This document shows, in pieces, positions 48,489 through 59,808 of a stretch of DNA of 64,000 nt (position 1 is its first letter; every line of letters begins with the position of its first letter). The notes beneath the pieces are model-generated. The model was not told where the DNA came from. It was given only the letters and a program-made list of their open reading frames with translations, and ran no database searches. The position numbers were made by a program, and so were the translations under genes. Source of the DNA: Exobasidium rhododendri (Eukaryota > Basidiomycota > Exobasidiomycetes > Exobasidiales > Exobasidiaceae); assembly GCA_026210745.1 (NCBI GenBank), contig CP110630.1:4712001-4776000 (forward strand), written 5' to 3'.

Positions 48489-51400
48489 CTAGGCGCTTCG
48501 ACCGGCAGTAGGATCTTTGGCGATGCTCAGTTGCTCCAAGAAGCCCACCCTTGCTTCGCCTTTCATATCGCCGTCATCTTCACCTAAAGCGTCATCGTCT
48601 TCATCATCGCCCACGACGTCTCCCACTTCAGCCAATCGATCCAGGAAGCCGCCCCTGTTCTGTGGAGGTGGCTTCGTCGCTGTCTGAATATCGAGACCTT
48701 CCTCGTTGGCCAAGTGAAGCAAGCAAATAAAGCAGAACGAAGTGCTGATCTCCTCCATTCGATCTTTTGGGTAAGCCTTGCGTAGACCAGATAAGACCGA
48801 ATTGAAGACCTTGGGTTGCAGTGATTCCGATAGTCTTGCCGCTCTTTTGGTCGCTTTCGGTGTAGCGCTACGATCTGCCATTTCATCCTCTATCTCCTCA
48901 ATCTCCTCGTCGCCGTCGCCGTCGTCGTCATCGTCCTCGTCACTGCCACTTGACGACTTGCCTATCGCTATAGCCAACTCTTTCCAAATATTCTCCTTAA
49001 GCTTCCTGACATCGACCCGTTTCGCCTTCTTTGCATAGTTGACAAATTCTGGTCGAATGCGCTTCAGTGCCTGTGTCGCCAACTCGGCATCATCTCCGTG
49101 TATGTCCAAGCCCAGCATTCCGTCTGGACCGTCGTCCATGGCATCAAAAGCACCATCATCTTCTGCATCGTGATAGAATTGCGTGTTAAATGGCATTCCT
49201 CCACCTTCTGCATCTGCGTACTCCGACTCTGTTCCCAACTCCCTGCTTGCTTCTCTTGCTGCAGCTGCTTTTGCCCAGTAAGCTTCATCGACGTCGGCCG
49301 GGTGAGATTTTCCATCGAGCGGATCCGACGTCACTACAGCCACTCCTTTCCGTTTCAAGTTCAGCATAGCGCGAGGTTTTATGAACAGTCGTAGCAATCG
49401 TCTGCTGTTAAAGTGTTGATCTTCCGGTAAGAGATATGTCTCTAGATGAGAAGCGTCCTTCTGTTGCGGCAGTGTAGTTCCACCACCTCCTTTTGCCACT
49501 TCAAAGAGTTGCTTTGCAGAGACGGCTGCTTCTGGAGAAGAAAAGTCAACAACGAAGGGTTCCTTTGACTTCTTGGCCACCCTTTCCGCCGCAACACCAT
49601 TCACGATGTCATTACGTTGACCAGGCGGCGCTCCCATGCCGACGTTTCTCATCTTCCAATGCTCTGGACCGGCCCAATTCTTTGCCAAACGCTGATCAAA
49701 ATAGTCAAAGAAGTCGTCCCCGTTCATTTTGACTCCATGTTCGTCTGTGATTCCTTGGAAAGCGGATGTGAAATCAATAGGCGCATTTGTGGGGATCATT
49801 GTTGCACCTCTCGTTATGCCTATTGCACCATCATCGCCTTCCTGATCGTCGTAATCGTAACCAATGTTGGCCCCTCCAGCAACTCCTGCTGCTGCTGCTG
49901 CTCCTCCTCCTCCAAATGCATCGACTTCACCAAATGCATCCTCCAGACCGTCGTTGTCATACGCTGGCATGTCATTAAAGAAGTCCTCTTCTTCTTCTAC
50001 AAGGCCAGGCATGGCATCTACGGCGTACTGTTGTGGCGTCGTCTCTGCCTCTCCTGCAGAAGTAATGGCAGTGAAGGGCGTGTCATCTCCCGGTGCAAAT
50101 TTGAAAGAGGCAAAGGTGGGACAGATGACGAGGTCTTCGAGAAGTCGATCGAGGATGTCATTTCCATCCTCTTCTTCACCTAGAAGCTCTGGAAAGAGCT
50201 TGCCTCGCAGCTTGAAGAGGTCCACCTGATCTTCAAAGGCGGCCGTCGTGGCCTGCATCGCGTCACTATTCTTCTCCCTATCCGGGTCACCTTCTCCCTC
50301 CTCCTCCTCTTCCTCAATAGACGCAAGGAGTTGCTCTTCCATCTCCTCATCGTCGCCCACGCCGGCAACATCACCTGCATCAAAGACCACCCTTGCATTA
50401 GAGTCAACGCCAAGATGATTCATGAGTAGACCTCCTGCACCCCCTTCATCGAAGTCAGCGCTTGTTTTCTTGAACAGCGGGTCCACTGTGAACTCCAAGT
50501 CCAGCTTCTTGACTGCCAATTGGGAGAATGATTTGGCCAGCGTAGGTTCTTTCGCTCGACTCTTCTTTTTTTTCGCGGCTGTACCATTCTCGTCTTCCTC
50601 GTCGACGCCATCCTCGTCGTCATCGTTCGCTCCTCCTTTCCCCCTCCTTGACTTGCTATTGCTGTCCTTTCCTTCATCCTGCAGCCCGCTCAGTAGCTTA
50701 CCGGTCTCTACTACCACACTGTCTACTCTCGAAGTCCATACCTTAACACACCCGTCCAAAGTACAAGACGCCTTCTGAAAGTTTATTGTTCCATCGCCTG
50801 TATCGCTTCGTAGTAGGGACATATCGTGAAAGTAGTCTATCAGAGCAAAGTTCCACGTATTCGTCGCATTGATCTTGTTGTCCGTTGCCATCTTCATCCA
50901 TTCCTCAAAGTTGGTGGAATCAACATTGAGTTTCACTACTTCCCGTACCTCTCGTTCGTGTTGTGCAATTCCAGCATTGGCAGCAGCATTGATACTGACA
51001 CCCAGACTCCGTCTCGGACCATTCCCCTGGTGTACTCGAGCAAGCGCAGCTACCGCTGGCTTAGACGTTGTCGACGAGCTCGATGCTTGACGGTCCATGT
51101 AACTATCGTCATTTGCATTCAAGGACGGCATCACTGATCTTGAAGTCACACCGGGAGGAAGCCTTCGAAGCGCAGATGAGGCCCCCTTTGCCCCACTGAA
51201 TGATCTTCTCCCTGTAATTGAGGTGCGAGGTATGGTGCGAGGAGGTCTCATCTCTTCGTTTTCGTGACCTATCATGCCCTCCGACGCCGCCATGGTCCGA
51301 GATGGCTTTCGACCTACGTGCTGTCGATTCATAGTATCATCCGTCGAGTTGGAGTGGAATCGGTTGGATATATTACCAAATGGTACAGTGGGTACCCCTG

Positions 51401-51563
51401 GTGTAGACACGATGCGATTCTTGACTCGCGTGATGCTGCCACTATCCATAGAGGACGATGTTGGAGGTGAAGAGCCAGACGAGACTAGAGACGTGATCGA
51501 TTTATCGGAGTCCTTTACAGTATTTTGAATAGAAGGCTGTCGTAGCCTAGGCGCACTATGCAT
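48489..51563 (-). CDS. BRN1: Condensin complex subunit 2 (Barren/CAP-H kleisin)
   Basis: A single long exon of 1024 aa. The family blocks are in order: KLNVDSTNFEEWMKMATDNKI, NTWNFALIDYFHDMSLLR (N-terminal kleisin helix region), LDGCVKVWTSRVDSVVVETG, LDLEFTVDPLFKKTSADFDE, KNWAGPEHWKMRN and a C-terminal winged-helix segment ISTSFCFICLLHLANEEGL. Brn1/CAP-H bridges the Smc2-Smc4 heads for mitotic chromosome condensation. Acidic linkers separate the blocks (runs of Asp/Glu at several points, plus a Gly/Ala run). A GTG lies six codons upstream, but the ATG at 51563 (MHSAPRLRQP) is the family-like start. It is divergent from the guanylyltransferase gene across 1.2 kb. Confidence 0.95.
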   Translation of the reverse strand: MHSAPRLRQPSIQNTVKDSDKSITSLVSSGSSPPTSSSMDSGSITRVKNRIVSTPGVPTVPFGNISNRFHSNSTDDTMNRQHVGRKPSRTMAASEGMIGHENEEMRPPRTIPRTSITGRRSFSGAKGASSALRRLPPGVTSRSVMPSLNANDDSYMDRQASSSSTTSKPAVAALARVHQGNGPRRSLGVSINAAANAGIAQHEREVREVVKLNVDSTNFEEWMKMATDNKINATNTWNFALIDYFHDMSLLRSDTGDGTINFQKASCTLDGCVKVWTSRVDSVVVETGKLLSGLQDEGKDSNSKSRRGKGGANDDDEDGVDEEDENGTAAKKKKSRAKEPTLAKSFSQLAVKKLDLEFTVDPLFKKTSADFDEGGAGGLLMNHLGVDSNARVVFDAGDVAGVGDDEEMEEQLLASIEEEEEEGEGDPDREKNSDAMQATTAAFEDQVDLFKLRGKLFPELLGEEEDGNDILDRLLEDLVICPTFASFKFAPGDDTPFTAITSAGEAETTPQQYAVDAMPGLVEEEEDFFNDMPAYDNDGLEDAFGEVDAFGGGGAAAAAGVAGGANIGYDYDDQEGDDGAIGITRGATMIPTNAPIDFTSAFQGITDEHGVKMNGDDFFDYFDQRLAKNWAGPEHWKMRNVGMGAPPGQRNDIVNGVAAERVAKKSKEPFVVDFSSPEAAVSAKQLFEVAKGGGGTTLPQQKDASHLETYLLPEDQHFNSRRLLRLFIKPRAMLNLKRKGVAVVTSDPLDGKSHPADVDEAYWAKAAAAREASRELGTESEYADAEGGGMPFNTQFYHDAEDDGAFDAMDDGPDGMLGLDIHGDDAELATQALKRIRPEFVNYAKKAKRVDVRKLKENIWKELAIAIGKSSSGSDEDDDDDGDGDEEIEEIEDEMADRSATPKATKRAARLSESLQPKVFNSVLSGLRKAYPKDRMEEISTSFCFICLLHLANEEGLDIQTATKPPPQNRGGFLDRLAEVGDVVGDDEDDDALGEDDGDMKGEARVGFLEQLSIAKDPTAGRSA

Positions 51564-52800
51564 GGAAGCAATTTCTACCACAAGGAATCATGAAAAAGAC
51601 AAGAAGCGAAGAGAAAAGAGCAAGGAGGAGGTGTTGCAGCGGTAGTCGACCTCGAGAAAGACCCGTGAAATCAAAGGTAGAGGCGCACTGACTAACAGCT
51701 CGCTTTGCCCTGCCCGTATACTTCACTCGGCTGCTCTCCTATTTAGATTTCATTGTTGGTTGTTCTCTGTCGCGCGCACAGAAAAAACACGACGCCTGAT
51801 GGAGGGCACGTGTTGTGTGCTCGGTGTTGTTCAACTTCAATTTCAATCTTGACCGTGTACTGGTCGGCTCAGTGACCGCGTACTGGTCCGCTCATGGCGA
51901 GATCGAGCATTGTGTACTTTGCCTGGGTGTGAGCTTCTCGATAGTCAGTGCTTCGAAGTTTCCGTTTTTATCTAAGAAGTGGTTTTGGAAGGCCCGAGAG
52001 CGGTAAGACTTTGCAAACGGCCGCGCTCTTCGACACTGGGGATATGATCGCAGCGTCCTGATCTGACTATTCGCCGGCATCTCAGCTCATGCTCTCATAT
52101 CACGAGGAGACACGTAAAGGTCATGGCTACTCCCAGAAAGTGCGGCAAGTGCTGCGGCCCTTCTCTGTGACCAAGGGGTGCTAAAGCCAAAAATACAGCC
52201 GTCAATGAATACGTCTTCTCCCCTCCTTCTTGCACGGCCATTTTCTCGAGTGTCTCTCAAAGTTCAAAGTCTTCGATCTCAGAAATGGTGGCTGAAGTGG
52301 GATGGAGCCAGCCTTGTTGTACGCAGCAACTTCTCACTCAACATCCAGGTTATCGTGTTTCATGTCTACAGCTTCTAGACACCTGCCATCTTTGTTTCAG
52401 GGCGCGAAAGCTTGAGTAATCCCGATCAGAACTCCCTGTATCTAGATAAACAAAGGGTTGTATTGGCACTATTTTATTGTAAATTCCGAGGCGATCAGTG
52501 CTTCCAAGTGGTAAGATTGGCGGGTATGATCTGGAACGGGGGAATTCCTTAGCTGAATTAAAGTGTGGCTACAATTTTGGAGGACACGCGTTTAATGCAA
52601 GGCCGAAGGCATTAAATGCGATATGCATGCAAATCTACCCGGCACAGTCGGACTGTCACAGGCATTCAGCACAAAGCTTCTTCCGGCTCCTTGTGTCTTG
52701 CTGTCCTTGAATCAAAGACACGTTTGCATTTCCCTCACCATCCTCACAAACAGTATAAGAAGGCTCACTTAGTTGCTGCCCCCCCACACACACACTCAAT
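51564..52800. promoter_or_regulatory. 1.2-kb divergent interval, BRN1 / guanylyltransferase
   Basis: Short open frames only. An ACGCGT is at 52586-52591 and CG-rich GCGCGC near 51772. The last 60 bp before the guanylyltransferase ATG contain a C run and a CA repeat. No RNA gene or mobile element recognised. Confidence 0.5.
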
Positions 52801-54558
52801 ATGGATCCTAGTGATAATCTAAGAACACCGAAAGTCATGCCATCGAAAGCCACCCTCGCGCCTAACGATCTCCTCCAAGCGGGTAGTGGAGCAAGCTTCA
52901 CTACGTACAATGGCAGCAGCGCAAGCAGCAACAGTAGCAGTGCTGACAGTAGCTACCTCGGCAAGCCCGCGACTCCTACCTTTCCCCAGTTGTCCGGCAA
53001 CAAGGCATCTACACCTCCTATCCTGAATCGCAACAGATCACAACAGAGTTATGAGCAGGCCGCTCCAGCTGATGAGAGGTCGGCGCTTGCGCAGATTTTG
53101 AGTGGCATCAATGACATGCAACGAGAGGTCAGTCCTCTTTGCTTGAGTGCAAAGAATTGGAGAGGGGAAGAATAAAGCGGCTGATCACACTCTCATTTTT
53201 TATTCCTTCCTTGCCCGCAGATGTCTCGCCTGCACATTCGAATGGACACAATGGAGGACCGCAGCATTGGCATCTCTCCTGCTCCTTCACCTCATATCCG
53301 ACCTAGAAGTATACAACGTGCAATTTCGAGTCGCAGTATGAGATCTTCTTCGCCGGAGAAATTGTCGACCATTCACAGCAGTACAACACCTGCTCATCTC
53401 GCTTCGCTTTCTCGTAATGCTGTCGCACAACCTAGTCCGATTTTGGCCAAAGAGCCTGAATTAGGACTTTGGTGCGTTGTGCCTGCAGGAGGAGCAGGAA
53501 CTAGACTGTGGCCTCTAAGCAGAGAAAGCTATCCAAAGTTCCTCCTCGACTTGGTGGGAAGTGGTAGGACGCTATTACAAAGCACTTGGGATCGACTCTT
53601 GCCCCTCTGCGGCCCGAAGCAAATGATCATCGTGACAGGAGATGCTCATGTGGATGGAGTACTAGATCAACTCCCAGAAATGGCCGAAAATAACGTCCTT
53701 GCAGAACCTTCACCAAAGGAATCTATGGCTGCTATCGGTCTTGCTGCAGCCGTTCTCTTGAAGAGAGATCCAGAGGCGGTATTAGGGTCGTTTGCCGCTG
53801 ATCACATCATCTCTGGCCGGGATGCATTTGAGAGTGCAGTCACAGAGGCAGTTGCTGTAGCGAGAGCCGGATATCTCGTCACGATTGGTATCGCCCCATC
53901 TCACCCCTCCACTGGATTCGGTTACATCAAGTTGGGGAAGTCGCTTGGAATTTCATCTGCTCCTAACGCAAAGATCGTCACTGAATTCAAGGAGAAGCCG
54001 GACGCAAGAACGGCTAGTGCATATCTCGCCACGGGTGATTATCGATGGAACGGTGGAATGTTTGTGGTCAAGGCATCGGTACTGCTCAACTTATTGAAGA
54101 GTAGCGTTCCCGAATTGCATGAAGGATTGATGAAAATTGCAGAATCCTGGGATGTAGGTGGGAAGCGAGAGCAAACGCTATCAGAAATCTGGCCAGGTCT
54201 GCCCAAGATTGCTATTGATCATGCTGTAGCAGAACCAGCGGCCAAAGCAGGTAAAGTTGCCGTAGTTCCTGCTACGTTTGGTTGGGATGACGTTGGTGAC
54301 TTTGCAAGTCTAGCGGATCTGATTCCAGCTGAAAAGGGTGAAGCTAGAGTCTTGGGTGATGCAAGCTTAGTCGTGACTGAATCGCAAGCAGGAGGTCTGA
54401 TTGTACCTGCCGCTGGTCGGACGATTGCTTGCTTGGGCGTGGATGACGTCGTCATTGTCGACACTCCGGATGCTCTTCTCATCACGACTCGCGCCAGAAG
54501 TCAAGATGTCAAGAAGATTGTGGCAAGGTGCAAGAAAGCCTTCCCTCAACTTTGCTAG
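52801..54558 (+). CDS. Bacterial (actinobacterial ManC)-type mannose-1-phosphate guanylyltransferase with fungal N-terminal extension
   Basis: Two exons, 52801-53127 and 53221-54558, give 554 aa. Residues about 1-190 are Ser/Ala/Pro-rich, with a predicted short coiled coil (LAQILSGINDMQREMSRLHI) across the only intron. The catalytic domain (about 191-554) opens with WCVVPAGGAGTRLWPLSRES (nucleotide-binding signature) and continues with EPSPKESMAAIGLAAAVLL, GSFAADHII, TEFKEKPDA, WNGGMFVVKASV and FGWDDVGDFASL. It makes GDP-mannose from GTP and mannose 1-phosphate, the donor for mannan, N-glycans and GPI anchors. The standard fungal enzyme (PSA1/MPG1) has a different signature (GGFGTRLRPLT-like) and a C-terminal beta helix, absent here. 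From family knowledge the closest look is to ~360-aa actinobacterial enzymes, so horizontal transfer is inferred. Confidence 0.9.
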
Positions 54559-54857: not shown

Positions 54858-55526
54858 TCATCTTCGTTTGCCTTTCACAACGGTTGTGAAGCCGTCTTCA
54901 TCCACGATGGGCTCTGCTCTTGACTTCGGTGCAGAGTCTACATCCATGGCGTCTTCCTCGCCTGACTCGCCGCTTTCATCTTCGCTACTACTGTCCTCCT
55001 CTGATTCCTGTGTTGTTTGAGTGACCACTTTTTTGCCCCGAATGGCAATAGCGTGTTGCTCCATCTTGTTCACCTCTTCGGTCGCAATCGACAATGACTC
55101 GTTTGTTGGTGGAAATGTCGCATATACAAGTTTGTGGAATTGAACCAATCTAGCTGCGATCAAATCAGCCGATTCATCCTCCAGTCTACTCTCGAATTCA
55201 TCCGCAAAGTACCCTTCCAAGATCTCAGCTAAATCGTCTACATCGGGTGTTTGGGGGGCTACAGGTAGGTTGTATTTTTCGCCATCATTGCCACCACCAC
55301 CACCACCACCACTGCTATCACCCTTTTCGACCGAAAATTCATCACAGAGATATGAAATGAGATAGTCGGCTTTGGCCTTTGATTCAGCACCTCCCCATTG
55401 CTCTGAGATCGCCAATCTTAGTGCAGGCCAGAGATCAAATGTGTATATGACGGAACGTGCAAACAGCAATTGTGTAGAACTCGGTCCTGCACTCGTTACT
55501 GCTGTCGCTGCCGATGAAGTTGCCAT
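54858..55526 (-). CDS. TSR2: Pre-rRNA processing protein TSR2 (eS26 escort)
   Basis: A single exon of 222 aa. The core RSVIYTFDLWPALRLAISEQ-WGG, then KADYLISYLCDEF, DVDDLAEILEGYFADEFES and ADLIAARLVQFHKLVYATF, is the conserved Tsr2 WGG domain. The acidic tail (EDSSSEDESGESGEEDAMDVD) and the terminal DGFTTVVKGKRR are also typical. Tsr2 chaperones ribosomal protein eS26 to 40S precursors in the nucleus. A Gly8 run sits mid-protein. The ATG at 55526 (MATSSAATAV) is preferred over longer in-frame starts, which lack family similarity. It is convergent with the guanylyltransferase gene and divergent from the PLC-like gene. Confidence 0.93.
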   Translation of the reverse strand: MATSSAATAVTSAGPSSTQLLFARSVIYTFDLWPALRLAISEQWGGAESKAKADYLISYLCDEFSVEKGDSSGGGGGGGNDGEKYNLPVAPQTPDVDDLAEILEGYFADEFESRLEDESADLIAARLVQFHKLVYATFPPTNESLSIATEEVNKMEQHAIAIRGKKVVTQTTQESEEDSSSEDESGESGEEDAMDVDSAPKSRAEPIVDEDGFTTVVKGKRR

Positions 55527-56131
55527 GTTGGTGTGTATGACCTGTAATAATAGGAAGGAGGTGCAGCTCTCTAAATTGGATGTCCTAAAGTCTTCTAGTC
55601 TCCTCAGAAAAATTATGTTTTCCAATTTCTCATGTGGTGAGAGTACCGACTTCCGCGAGTATACATATATGATCCTAAATTCGAGCCACGCGACTCCAAG
55701 AGGAAGCCGAGCTTTGTTGAACTAAAGTCTTGGCCCCTCGATGCCGTTTAGATCTTGAACCGTGTGTGCACGCACAAGACAGGCACGGCGGCTCCTCCAC
55801 TATCGCCCAAGTCGCCTCCGCCCCTGAGTTTGATGGAGCGAGCTTGTGGAGAGAAGTGAACTTCGTCGGGAAGAAAGAAGCGCGGTGCAATGTAGCAATT
55901 TTGGAAAAACAATTTAGGAAATAAGAGGTAAAAATAGTGCTTTGTGTTGGTTTCCTCCTAAAATAGCTTACCACAGCTCACCGCTCCCCATTCTTCTCCG
56001 TCCTCTCCAACAGACTTATTTTTGCTCATCATCAAGGCTGGTCCTTGTTCTTTTGAATTCTTGCTTCTCTTCACCATTCGAACACTGCCTCTCCCTTCCC
56101 GCCACCTCTTTACTTCCTTTCGATCTTCTCA
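55527..56131. promoter_or_regulatory. Divergent promoter, TSR2 / PLC-like gene
   Basis: 605 bp. TATA-like ATACATATATG is at 55660-55672. The 120 bp before the PLC-like ATG are strongly CT-rich, a likely 5' UTR. No coding potential. Confidence 0.5.
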
Positions 56132-57645
56132 ATGGTCTTTCGCAACGTATCGCTCCTACTTTGCTCCGTGCTGCTGGTCAGCATAAATCTAGCCTTTCTC
56201 CCAGCGTATGCCCGGAGTCTGCCAAAGCGTGCTACCGTGTGCAACGGGGAGAGCAGCCTATGTGATCGATCGTATGGCAATGTCACCTTTGCTGGAGCGC
56301 ACGGTGAGTCTTCAGGGTGATGTAATACTATGCTAAATGGGTCCTTACCTTGCAAGGACTGTGCTTCCTTTTCCCTTTCCATTCCAGATTCGTATGCCAT
56401 TGGAACGAGTCGTGCGTGGAGCGCCAAATAGATGTAGCGTAGCAGGAATGTGTTGCTGACTTTCTCTTCTCCTTCCTCTAATCTTTCCTCCAGTGGCGGC
56501 AAATCAAAACGTATCCATTCACGATCAGCTTAATGCTGGAATTAGGATGCTACAATCACAAGCTCACAAGAGCACAAACTCAACACCTACAGGTGTCGGG
56601 ATCGATCTCTGTCATACTTCGTGAGTGAAAAGGGAAGAGAAAAAGCGTAGAGCAAATCTTGTTGACGAAAAGAGTCCAACTTTCCTATTCTATCCCGCTC
56701 AGATGCTCGATATTCCAAGGCGGTGCAATCGAGTACTGGCTCGGTCAGATCAAGAACTGGACTGATGCCAATCCCACTGAAGTCGTCACCTTACTAATAG
56801 TCAACTCAGACGGACTCGCACCTTCCACGTTTGCCACCGCTTTTAACAGTACAGGACTAGCTGACAAGATGTACACACCTACTTCGGCCACCGTGACAAA
56901 GTCGAGCTGGCCTACGTTGGGAACGATGGTGGATTCCGGAAAGACGATTGTTGGCTTCCTTACTACTGAAGCCAATTACACTTCGGTAGACTACCTCTTG
57001 GATGGTGAGCGAACATCCTCAGATGCGACTGCACGCTGGAAACGTCGCTTGAAGGAGCTAATCCTTGTTCCCCTTCCTTTCCTTACGAGAAAAGAGTTCT
57101 CCAACATCTGGGAAAACCCCTACGATCAAACGACTTATCCGTTCAACTGTTCCATCAATCGTATCGGCGAGGGCGTCACAGATTCTTCATCGTTGATGTA
57201 CATCTCCAATCAGTTTCTCGACAGTTCAAGCCTCGGAGGACTTCTCGTTACACCTGATACAGCTGCTCTTAACACGACCAATTCAATCTCCGGCACCTTG
57301 TCAACTTCCGGGACTTGTGCATCCGAGCATGGTACTTATCCCAACTTTATCCTCACTGACTTCAGCACTGTACCTGATTACGACCTCTTGAAAGCTGTAG
57401 CAGAAGTGAGTGGGGCTTGTGAAGATTCTGGGTAGATGGAATGGACCCCACTAACGCCTTTTCCTTTCAACTACGATCAGATGAACGGCGTCACTTATAC
57501 AGCCACTGGCCCGCCAAGCTCAACCTCCTCCTCTTCCAGCAGCGCCTCTTCCAGCAGCAGCGGCGGTGCTACTATTCGCTTCCCCATTTGGTCGAGTGCG
57601 GCATTGGCCCTCTTTGCAATTGGATCAGTAGCGCTCCTGCTATAG
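56132..57645 (+). CDS. Secreted GPI-anchored PLC-like phosphodiesterase
   Basis: Six exons (56132-56303, 56388-56411, 56494-56620, 56703-57004, 57095-57405, 57481-57645) give 366 aa. A signal peptide (LLLCSVLLVSINLAFLPAYA) precedes a Leu-Pro-Lys-Arg Kex2-like site. The TIM-barrel phosphodiesterase marks follow: GAHDSYAIGTS (first catalytic His), NVSIHDQLNAGIRMLQSQAH (second His) and DLCHTSCSIFQGGAIEYWLG. The C-terminus is Ser-rich, then SGGATIRFPIWSSAALALFA and further hydrophobic residues, a GPI-anchor signal. Several N-glycosylation sequons are present. Fungal relatives are extracellular PI-PLC-like proteins of unclear substrate. Exon 2 is a 24-nt micro-exon carrying the DSYAIGTS block. The acceptor of exon 5 (AAAAG) is weak but phase-correct. 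Confidence 0.9.
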
Positions 57646-57822: not shown

Positions 57823-59808
57823 CTACACCGCCCCATCCACTTTCTCCCACTCCTCTTGCGAACTAAAGCTGTCATCCTTATGGGGCAGACCTTCTGTCTC
57901 GTTGGCTCCATCGACACGAGGCAATAGATTCAAGCTGAGCATGCTCGCTTTGATCTGCTCCTTCGTCTCTCCTTCATCCACTCGACTGCCATCTTCCTTT
58001 AGCTCAGAGAAGGGAGGCAGGGCGCCCTCTCTTGCTTCTTTCCACACTCGCTTTGCCACACCTTCACACTTGATAATGACGTCTCTAGCCAGAGCGCGAA
58101 CGTATTTCCCTTCTTCTTGTTGGCCGTACTCTTTTTCTGGTTGTTGTGTCAGACTTGCCTCGAACAACTCTTGTTTCTCTTCCTTTGCAGGACCCGATGG
58201 CGTGTTTGTGTACCAGCCATCGATCTTCCCTGCAAACACATACTCTCGAGCAAAGAAGTCCGACTGTGCTCCATATCGAGTCGAGGTATCTAGATGGCTC
58301 GAGGGAGCCAATGCGACATGTGACGCAGCTACTGCTCCCTTATATCCTTCGATATTGTGATGCTTTGAGAATGTCCATCTTGCTAGGTAGAATGCGAACT
58401 TCATACAAGCTGACAAGAAGGCATTGAGGCAAGCGGCAAAGATCGAACTAGCTACTACACCAGGGTGGGCCAAGTAGCATTTGGGCTCTAGCACACCCGA
58501 GCCTGATCGATGGGAAGACTGAAGCTTGTTCTCTTCCAAGGCATAAGGGAGCGGTGTGCCAGGTTGAGTGCGCATCCGACTTCGATCCAGCAGTTCCTCC
58601 AACCCTAGAGCAGCCAATTCACACTGGTACTTGGCACTTTCGTATGGTTTAGGTGTCTTGATAAGGTCAAAGCCTTGGAAGTCTGAAGGGGTGTATTTGT
58701 TCTCTTGTGCTTCCAAGCTCCCAGTCCAAATGATACGACTTGGCGTAGAGTATGGAGTAGCGCGAAGGGCAGGCAACAGAGCTCGGATCTTCAAGGGTGG
58801 AAGGGGAAAAAGAGGTGTGAGTGTCATATTCGACGCCATCGACAAAGTTGTCTGTTCACCATACCAAAACTCACCAAAATATAATGAGCTCCTAGATTAG
58901 CCTGCCAAACCCAACCATACCCATCTCGTCCTACGTCGCCCGCTCTTTGCAGCTTGTACTGTGGGTAGGTAACAGCGGCATGGAAGCTTGTCATGACCAT
59001 CCAAACGGCATGAAACCAATTGATGCCGGTAAAAGCGCTACTACCGGCATTCAAGACAATGTGAGTGACGTAGTGGTGTCTACGAAGGTGTGTAAATGTT
59101 AAGTAAGCTGTAAGATTGACTGTCCTACGTGCTACTGATGATGACTTCAACGTACCTGGCTGTAATCTCCTTTGCACAAGTTAGAGCAGAAGCCATGCTG
59201 CCTAGATCCAGCGCTTGAAACTCAATCTTCGTTTCTGCACAAAACTTTCTTCTATACTTCCCTCGAGCCTTGATCTCTCTCTCATATAGGGAAAAGGTTC
59301 TTCCCGTTTTTGGATCTCTCGTCAAGTCCCTTTCTTCATCAGCTTCTTGCCCTGACGATGAAAGGCTTACTGCCTTATTCCTCCTCCTTCTCCTTCGCAT
59401 ACTTGCTTCGACCGCCTGCGCTACCAAAGCCGGATCCGCATCTTCATCAATACTGCCATTCACTTTAGACTCTAGTGCCAAGTCGAAAAGGCTAGTTGGC
59501 ACACTCAAAGGTGTTTCTGCGTCATCTGGTAAGTCTTCTAGATATTGAAGGAGTGCTTGTAATTGAGCTCTTGCTCGATGTGCCTTTATTGCATTTCGAC
59601 ATGCCAAGATCAAGACGCAGCCATTAGGTGCTGCAAAGGGGCTGGCAGGTGGCTGATCCCCCGAAGGTGTGAGATGAGGATGGGTGGGTAGAGTGTCTGG
59701 AGGTGTTGGAGATGATAATTGTACAAGAAGTCGTTGAGCGAGACCGAAACCTACACCACTATTCGCTCCTGTAATGACAATCACTGGCCGGAGGACGGGA
59801 GAAGCCAT
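57823..59808 (-). CDS. ERG27: 3-keto-steroid reductase (ergosterol pathway)
   Basis: Three exons (59808-59156, 59079-58875, 58788-57823) give 607 aa. SDR hallmarks: VIVITGANSGVGFGLAQRLL (NADPH-binding TGxxxGxG), HIVLNAGSSAFTGINW (NAG), IIWTGSLEAQ (Ser) and YESAKYQCELAALGL (YxxxK). HPGVVASSIFA and the membrane-proximal segment match Erg27. It reduces the 3-keto group during C-4 demethylation of sterols at the ER, together with Erg25, Erg26 and Erg28. It is much longer than yeast Erg27 (about 350 aa). Extra length lies in a Pro-rich loop near residues 35-60, a charged insert with six consecutive Arg near 137-150, and a long acidic tail. It shares a 284-bp divergent promoter with GEP4. Confidence 0.9.

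What the first reader, a model, noticed from the sequence alone, without database searches (positions are those of the whole stretch)
53450..54558. Actinobacterial-type GDP-mannose pyrophosphorylase in a fungal genome: horizontal-transfer candidate
The catalytic domain carries the bacterial ManC-type signature (PAGGAGTRLWPLS) with KESMAAIGLAAAV, GSFAADHI and FGWDDVGDF blocks, and ends without the beta-helix domain found in fungal PSA1/MPG1. It is intron-free over 1.1 kb among otherwise intron-bearing genes. From family knowledge the nearest look is to ~360-aa actinobacterial enzymes. If true, this fungus has a second, prokaryotic route to GDP-mannose, or has replaced its own. The flanking genes (BRN1, TSR2) are ordinary fungal genes and the gene itself carries a spliceosomal intron, arguing against contamination.
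Basis: partly seen in the sequence, partly recalled or inferred. Interest (0 to 1): 0.78.

Follow-up and report, generated by a model that had tools for sequence, protein, structure and literature searches.

The report
Bacterial GDP-mannose enzyme replacing fungal one
This smut-related fungus appears to make GDP-mannose, the sugar donor for its glycoproteins and cell wall, with an enzyme that an ancestor took from an actinobacterium long ago, and the normal fungal enzyme seems to be gone; public protein lists suggest the same for mushrooms and other smuts.

Summary
The gene (exons 52801-53127 and 53221-54558, 554 aa) equals public protein CBS101457_002020 of Exobasidium rhododendri. Its catalytic domain is a bacterial ManC-type mannose-1-phosphate guanylyltransferase. 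In an 80-row tree the 40 fungal copies form one clade (100/98), sister to the actinobacterium Kineococcus (100/99) and within actinobacteria. In Kineococcus the gene keeps the usual actinobacterial neighbours, so it probably moved from bacterium to fungus.

Three PSA1 queries and two Pfam searches found no native PSA1/MPG1 in the 17.65 Mb assembly, though they touched the distant paralogues eIF2B-epsilon and, below threshold, eIF2B-gamma. Other mannose-pathway families tested are present. In best-120 lists, ManC appears in smuts, Agaricomycetes and Hypocreales; PSA1 in Tremellomycetes, Pucciniomycotina, Dacryopinax and Wallemia but in no named Agaricomycete or smut. Hypocreales nest inside Agaricomycetes: a second, fungus-to-fungus transfer. 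A 2021 study left a Dikarya-only GMPP clade of unclear origin; this family probably explains it. Enzyme activity is inferred, not shown.

The parts
52801..53127 (+). exon 1: Ser-rich low-complexity N-terminus and the first part of a coiled-coil-like segment (residues 1-109); bacterial ManC has no counterpart of this length
   Evidence: spliced translation; N-terminal alignment of 27 sequences, judged by eye
53128..53220 (+). spliceosomal intron, GT-AG, 93 bp
   Evidence: sequence; the annotated NCBI protein P0001 is identical to the spliced product
53221..54558 (+). exon 2: rest of the coiled-coil-like segment, Ser/Pro-rich linker, ManC-type mannose-1-phosphate guanylyltransferase domain, stop codon
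53479..54321 (+). NTP_transferase catalytic domain (residues 196-476)
   Evidence: PF00483, E 2e-36; PDB relatives 2x5s, 2cu2
54394..54528 (+). ManC_GMP_beta-helix small C-terminal domain (residues 501-545)
   Evidence: PF22640, 45.7 bits against cut-off 27
48489..51587 (-). flanking fungal gene, condensin subunit 2 (BRN1/Cnd2)
   Evidence: PF05786, E 3e-162
54861..55721 (-). flanking fungal gene, TSR2
   Evidence: PF10273, E 3e-20

Best explanation
The gene encodes a ManC-type GDP-mannose pyrophosphorylase (GTP + mannose 1-phosphate -> GDP-mannose + PPi). An early basidiomycete acquired it from an actinobacterium close to Kineococcus, where the gene is ancestral and lies between sdh genes and an M20 peptidase gene. 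In the fungus it gained a coiled-coil-like plus Ser/Pro-rich N-terminal extension and, in this gene, an intron. It then took over the step between phosphomannomutase (SEC53) and the mannosyltransferases, after which native PSA1/MPG1 and its GMPPA-like partner were lost. It was inherited vertically in Ustilaginomycotina (this window) and Agaricomycetes, and later passed from an agaricomycete into the Hypocreales. Shown here: sequence family, tree position, bacterial gene order, failure to find PSA1 or GMPPA in this assembly. Inferred: catalysis in vivo, essentiality, absence of PSA1 from other smuts and mushrooms (from ranked lists), and the role of the extension (perhaps oligomerisation or location).
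For: Family: TIGR01479 GMP_PMI at 254.9 bits, below its cut-off of 372.95, the match ending at profile position 347 of 467; PF00483 + PF22640; Thermotoga GMP 2x5s at E 2.3e-50; motif letters invariant in 43 sequences. Origin: 80-row tree with fungi 100/98 and fungi + Kineococcus 100/99, within actinobacteria when rooted on three distant Actinomycetota rows; holding the 37 actinobacterial ingroup rows together without fungi is rejected, p-AU 0.0175; in the order of Kineococcus 191 of 198 genomes hold a relative, 12 of those listed at 67-71% identity and every other listed row at 64% or less (list cut). Direction: Kineococcus manC keeps the neighbours SdhA, two Sdh_cyt, M20 and Bmp (Pfam on L011); matches to these five occur in 65, 65, 65, 63 and 56 of 74 other actinobacterial loci. 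Replacement: no PSA1 exon with yeast, composite or Wallemia PSA1; no PF25087 match over cut-off; PF00483 finds only this gene at E <= 0.001; the PSA1 queries do hit eIF2B-epsilon, and PF25087 hits eIF2B-gamma below cut-off (identified); PMM, PMI, PMT and UDPGP families are present. Clade-wide: the 120 best PSA1 hits include 29 named basidiomycetes: 12 Tremellomycetes, 15 Pucciniomycotina, 1 Dacryopinax, 1 Wallemia, 0 Agaricomycetes, 0 Ustilaginomycotina (my hand classification).
Against: No enzymatic or genetic test. Only one fungal genome could be searched whole; its completeness was not measured, and PSA1 could lie in an unassembled part. PMC9781776 (passages read) reports the Man-1-P to GDP-Man gene missing in Dichomitus squalens when mapped from Aspergillus niger, but a gene for every mannose step in Phanerochaete chrysosporium, which could mean that some Agaricomycetes keep a PSA1- or GMPPA-like gene. 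Two separate transfers from the same donor lineage are not firmly rejected (p-AU 0.065 and 0.067). The nesting within actinobacteria depends on long-branched outgroup rows (branch 2.39), and the two trees differ in which actinobacterial rows lie outermost; p 0.0175 is one of five AU tests, uncorrected.
Confidence: 0.8

Rival explanations
1. Two independent acquisitions, one in Ustilaginomycotina and one in Agaricomycetes, from related Kineococcus-like donors.
For: Holding Ustilaginomycotina with Kineococcus, or Agaricomycetes plus Hypocreales with Kineococcus, is not rejected at 5% (p-AU 0.065; 0.067). Smut-Kineococcus mean identity (69.8%) is as high as smut-agaric identity (68.3%). The two lineages are not sister groups, and Tremellomycetes, Dacryopinax and Wallemia in between show PSA1 (species relationships recalled).
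Against: Fungal monophyly at 100/98. Both lineages carry an N-terminal coiled-coil-like block plus Ser/Pro linker that the two Kineococcus proteins lack, though its homology is not proven.
Confidence: 0.14
2. The ManC-type enzyme is an extra, specialised enzyme and native PSA1 is still present but missed.
For: Hypocreales plausibly have both (Trichoderma MPG1 is recalled, not tested). The search is exon by exon and heuristic, and assembly completeness is unknown.
Against: Yeast, composite and real Wallemia PSA1 all fail while they do hit the far more distant eIF2B-epsilon; PF25087 reaches eIF2B-gamma below cut-off but no PSA1. PMM is recovered across three exons. A PSA1 at about 70% identity should be easier to find.
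Confidence: 0.1
3. The gene moved from fungi to Kineococcus.
For: Kineococcus is closer to fungi (67.0% mean) than to the other actinobacterial rows (59.8%), and Quadrisphaera, also Kineosporiaceae, falls elsewhere.
Against: Kineococcus manC sits in the conserved actinobacterial locus between sdh genes and M20-Bmp. It is the sister of fungi, not nested in them, and gave one match in each of the 12 Kineococcus-like genomes listed. In-place replacement of a resident gene is possible but needs more steps.
Confidence: 0.04
4. Bacterial contamination of the assembly.
For: The domain is bacterial in kind.
Against: The gene lies on a 7.1 Mb contig between BRN1 and TSR2, has a spliceosomal intron, and has relatives at 62-85% identity in named smuts and up to 91% in unnamed sources.
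Confidence: 0.01

Closest known systems
Bacterial ManC/GMP mannose-1-phosphate guanylyltransferase (Kineococcus; solved relatives Thermotoga maritima 2x5s, Thermus 2cu2; the two species names are recalled)
   Same: Domain order PF00483 + PF22640, catalytic motifs, 67-71% identity to Kineococcus over about 356 aa.
   Different: Nuclear fungal gene with an intron and a roughly 190-aa N-terminal extension (coiled-coil-like plus Ser/Pro-rich); no isomerase domain.
Fungal PSA1/MPG1 (GMPPB type, PF00483 + hexapeptide beta-helix PF25087)
   Same: Presumed reaction and place in the pathway.
   Different: Different subfamily: the best of 120 PSA1 proteins against the ManC domain reaches only E 0.04 by BLASTP; no PF25087. 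It appears to have been replaced.
GMPP 'split E' clade of Schwerdt et al. 2021 (PMC8092308; abstract, sections 6 and 11 and selected passages read)
   Same: Dikarya-only, no early-branching fungi, separated by a long branch, no characterised member, function assigned by profile and homology.
   Different: That split E is this family is my inference (figure and supplement not seen). In what I read, no bacterial origin and no mutual exclusion with PSA1 is stated.

Membership tests
ManC-type GDP-mannose pyrophosphorylase | NTP_transferase domain with GGxGxRLWPLS....PK signature | tested here: met
   PF00483 126.3 bits; motif letters invariant in 43 sequences
ManC-type GDP-mannose pyrophosphorylase | ManC_GMP_beta-helix C-terminal domain PF22640 | tested here: met
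   45.7 bits, cut-off 27
ManC-type GDP-mannose pyrophosphorylase | phylogenetic position among bacterial ManC | tested here: met
   80-row tree, sister to Kineococcus 100/99
ManC-type GDP-mannose pyrophosphorylase | GTP:mannose-1-phosphate guanylyltransferase activity | not testable with these tools
   needs an enzyme assay
Bifunctional GMP-PMI (TIGR01479) | C-terminal phosphomannose isomerase domain and score above cut-off | tested here: not met
   254.9 bits against 372.95; match ends at profile position 347 of 467
Fungal PSA1/MPG1 (GMPPB) | hexapeptide-repeat beta-helix C-terminus (PF25087) | tested here: not met
   only PF00483 and PF22640 found
Horizontally transferred gene | strongly supported nesting inside a distant donor group, with the recipient clade monophyletic | tested here: met
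   AU p 0.0175 against fungi lying outside the actinobacterial rows; depends on a long-branched outgroup
Horizontally transferred gene | not contamination: linked to host genes, with intron and relatives in related hosts | tested here: met

The most novel reading that the evidence does not exclude
A single ancient gift of an actinobacterial gene took over an essential, otherwise near-universal step of eukaryotic glycosylation. Mushrooms (Agaricomycetes) and smuts with Malassezia (Ustilaginomycotina) as whole groups now make GDP-mannose with a bacterial enzyme and have discarded both PSA1 and its GMPPA-type regulator. The fungal coiled-coil extension replaced the lost regulatory assembly, and the gene later jumped from mushrooms to Hypocreales, an order that includes fungi parasitic on other fungi.
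Probability: 0.55. Interest if true: 0.87.

Novelty: new variant of a known kind. Interest (0 to 1): 0.77.

Why it matters
GDP-mannose feeds N-glycans, O-mannosylation, GPI anchors and cell-wall mannan (general knowledge), and repression of the PSA1 gene is reported to cost Candida albicans its viability (PMC12068732, passages read). Replacement of such an enzyme by a bacterial analogue in two large basidiomycete groups would be a clear case of core-pathway displacement by horizontal transfer. It would answer where the unexplained Dikarya-only GMPP clade came from. It could also explain why an orthology-based metabolic model missed this step in a mushroom (Dichomitus squalens, PMC9781776). It raises testable questions on feedback control without GMPPA. 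Because the enzyme differs in kind from the PSA1/GMPPB type, it is also a possible selective antifungal target in groups that include Malassezia and smuts.

Tried and rejected
Contamination: rejected (contig, neighbours, intron, relatives in other smuts). Recent species-specific transfer: rejected, since named hits span 15 genera of Ustilaginomycotina. Vertical Dikarya inheritance including Hypocreales: rejected, because Basidiomycota without Hypocreales gives p-AU 1.4e-5 and Agaricomycetes without Hypocreales p-AU 7.2e-6. Fungus to Kineococcus: disfavoured by gene order. Weak hits of the PSA1 searches in the own genome: C3:1567359 is eIF2B-epsilon (PDB match E 1.3e-36) and C2:501162 eIF2B-gamma (E 1e-16); C1:1547458 and C1:6433564 lie below cut-off (E 0.04 and 3.5) and C1:3850110 has E 0.185; I take these three for chance and did not examine them closely. 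Literature: in the listings of all 10 searches I saw no title or start of an abstract that reports a bacterial origin of a fungal ManC. This library lacks most subscription papers and all preprints.

22 of the 102 (long branches or near-copies) were then dropped for the 80-row tree, which keeps 8 Kineococcus-like rows, 5 of them named. The N-terminal alignment used 27 hand-picked sequences, alignment A1 43.

Full report
What is there. The gene on the plus strand has exon 1 at 52801-53127, a 93-bp GT-AG intron at 53128-53220 and exon 2 at 53221-54558. It encodes 554 aa. A search of public proteins returned an annotated protein of Exobasidium rhododendri (CBS101457_002020) that is identical letter for letter to the spliced product, on a contig of 7,127,044 bases, the length of the window's own contig. 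Pfam finds NTP_transferase at residues 196-476 and the ManC-type small beta-helix PF22640 at 501-545. The neighbours are Cnd2/BRN1 and TSR2. NCBIfam's best family is the bacterial GMP_PMI (TIGR01479), below its cut-off, with the match ending before the last 120 profile positions, where the isomerase part lies (place of the isomerase recalled). The nearest solved structures are bacterial guanylyltransferases 2x5s and 2cu2. The letters of the main ManC motifs are invariant across 43 fungal and bacterial sequences.

Who has it. Of the 120 best hits to the window protein, 58 bear an organism name: by my hand classification 24 Ustilaginomycotina (15 genera), 26 Agaricomycetes, 5 Hypocreales and 3 Kineococcus. 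A search with the Trichoderma copy gave further Hypocreales (Beauveria, Metarhizium, Claviceps, Escovopsis, Ustilaginoidea and others) and many Agaricomycetes. Both lists show only the best 120, and a name is that of one member of a cluster, so absence from them is not proof. In the order that holds Kineococcus, 191 of 198 sampled genomes encode a relative; of the rows listed, 12 show 67-71% identity to the window protein and the others 64% or less. In a sample of the whole phylum 36 of 396 gave a match.

Tree. A quick tree of 102 rows and a careful tree of 80 rows and 359 columns (LG+C20+F+G4, bootstrap/SH-aLRT) agree on the groups that matter. In the careful tree all 40 fungal rows form one clade (100/98). 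The 8 Kineococcus-like rows are its sister (100/99). Rooted on three distant Actinomycetota rows, both lie among other actinobacteria: three actinobacterial rows fall outside a 74-row branch (100/99) that holds the fungi. The quick tree places different actinobacterial rows outermost, and the outgroup branch is long (2.39), so the deepest order is unsure. Ustilaginomycotina form one clade (100/98). Agaricomycetes plus Hypocreales form the other (100/97), and Hypocreales (99/94) lie inside Agaricomycetes (100/100 for the inner branch). AU tests, five in all and uncorrected: the 37 actinobacterial ingroup rows as a clade without fungi, p 0.0175; Agaricomycetes without Hypocreales, p 7.2e-6; Basidiomycota without Hypocreales, p 1.4e-5; smuts with Kineococcus, p 0.065; agarics plus Hypocreales with Kineococcus, p 0.067. 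A single transfer is favoured but two remain open. Six alignment columns set fungi plus Kineococcus against the other actinobacterial rows, against one for Kineococcus plus others and two for fungi plus others.

Direction. In Kineococcus the gene lies between succinate dehydrogenase genes (Sdh_cyt, Sdh_cyt, flavoprotein) and an M20 peptidase gene followed by a Bmp lipoprotein gene (Pfam on L011). Proteins matching these five neighbours were found in 65, 65, 65, 63 and 56 of the 74 other actinobacterial loci (the count takes a match anywhere in the fetched stretch, and some loci are cut short). The gene is therefore in its ancestral place in Kineococcus, and the transfer most likely ran from an actinobacterium to a fungus.

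Replacement of PSA1. The whole assembly (17,647,348 bases, 4 contigs) was searched with yeast PSA1, a composite basidiomycete PSA1, a real Wallemia PSA1, Pfam NTP_transferase and the PSA1-specific C-terminal family PF25087. None gave a PSA1 or GMPPA exon. All three PSA1 queries hit one exon at C3:1567359, which is eIF2B-epsilon; PF25087 gave, below its cut-off, a stretch at C2:501162 that is eIF2B-gamma. These are far more distant relatives than PSA1 would be, so the searches were sensitive enough. Phosphomannomutase in three exons, phosphomannose isomerase, protein O-mannosyltransferases and UDPGP-family enzymes are present. As far as these searches reach, the step from mannose 1-phosphate to GDP-mannose is left to the gene in this window. 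I did not measure assembly completeness.

The wider pattern. The composite PSA1 query, whose best hit is 94% identical (Kwoniella), returned 120 best proteins, 91 with an organism name (hand count). Of 29 named basidiomycetes, 12 are Tremellomycetes, 15 Pucciniomycotina, 1 Dacryopinax and 1 Wallemia. None is an agaricomycete or a smut, although Mucoromycota and Ascomycota, more distant from the query, are on the list. The 29 unnamed proteins could not be placed. The distributions of PSA1 and ManC in Basidiomycota thus look complementary. In support, an orthology mapping from Aspergillus niger reported the Man-1-P to GDP-Man gene as missing in the mushroom Dichomitus squalens (PMC9781776, passages read), and a Ganoderma transcriptome names a mannose-1-phosphate guanylyltransferase 'ManC' (PMC9605614, passages read). 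Against it, PMC9781776 reports a gene for every mannose step in Phanerochaete, which I could not resolve. One transfer in the common ancestor of Agaricomycotina and Ustilaginomycotina needs later loss of ManC in Wallemia, Tremellomycetes and Dacrymycetes. A transfer into one lineage followed by a fungus-to-fungus transfer needs fewer losses, and the Hypocreales case suggests that such transfers of this gene happen.

The extension. The 25 fungal sequences in the N-terminal alignment have extensions of 100-334 aa before the catalytic domain. By eye they hold a coiled-coil-like block (roughly ILxGIxxMQ+ELxRLHxRMD in smuts, IMxxVxKSxxEIxELRxECxxLRxAN in agarics and Hypocreales) and a Ser/Pro-rich linker; no coiled-coil program was run. 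The two Kineococcus proteins have 46-47 residues there. PSA1 oligomerises through its beta-helix and is controlled by GMPPA (recalled, not tested). A reasonable guess is that the extension supplies assembly or location in place of the lost parts. This is untested.

What is new. Schwerdt et al. 2021 (PMC8092308; abstract, sections 6 and 11 and selected passages read) describe a third GMPP clade, 'split E', as Dikarya-specific, on a long branch, without early-branching fungi or any characterised member, and possibly in need of functional reassessment. This family fits that description, and the data here give it a likely donor, a direction and a consequence. The listings of my ten literature searches showed no title or start of an abstract stating this (see Tried and rejected). 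The enzyme is a known kind; the displacement of a core eukaryotic enzyme in two large fungal groups, and the onward transfer to Hypocreales, is the novel part.

Noticed in passing
P0100, P0105, P0106, P0121, P0129, P0131, P0137, P0142, P0146, P0156: Hypocreales (Trichoderma, Cladobotryum, Escovopsis, Beauveria, Metarhizium, Claviceps) carry a ManC; the 9 of these in the tree nest inside Agaricomycetes, a likely ancient mushroom-to-ascomycete transfer in an order that includes fungus parasites.
   Followed up: yes
P0017, P0024: Two smut relatives carry the source name 'aminopeptidase', probably a naming error or a fusion with a neighbouring gene in annotation.
   Followed up: no
window 56629-57435 (+): Reading frame that looks to me like a PLC-like phosphodiesterase (from memory); Pfam gave no match to this fragment.
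   Followed up: partly
window 57823-58896 (-): Reading frame that looks to me like ERG27 3-keto-steroid reductase (from memory); Pfam gave no match to this fragment.
   Followed up: partly
L064 (Quadrisphaera) against Kineococcus: Two genera of Kineosporiaceae fall apart in the ManC tree; only Kineococcus is close to fungi.
   Followed up: partly
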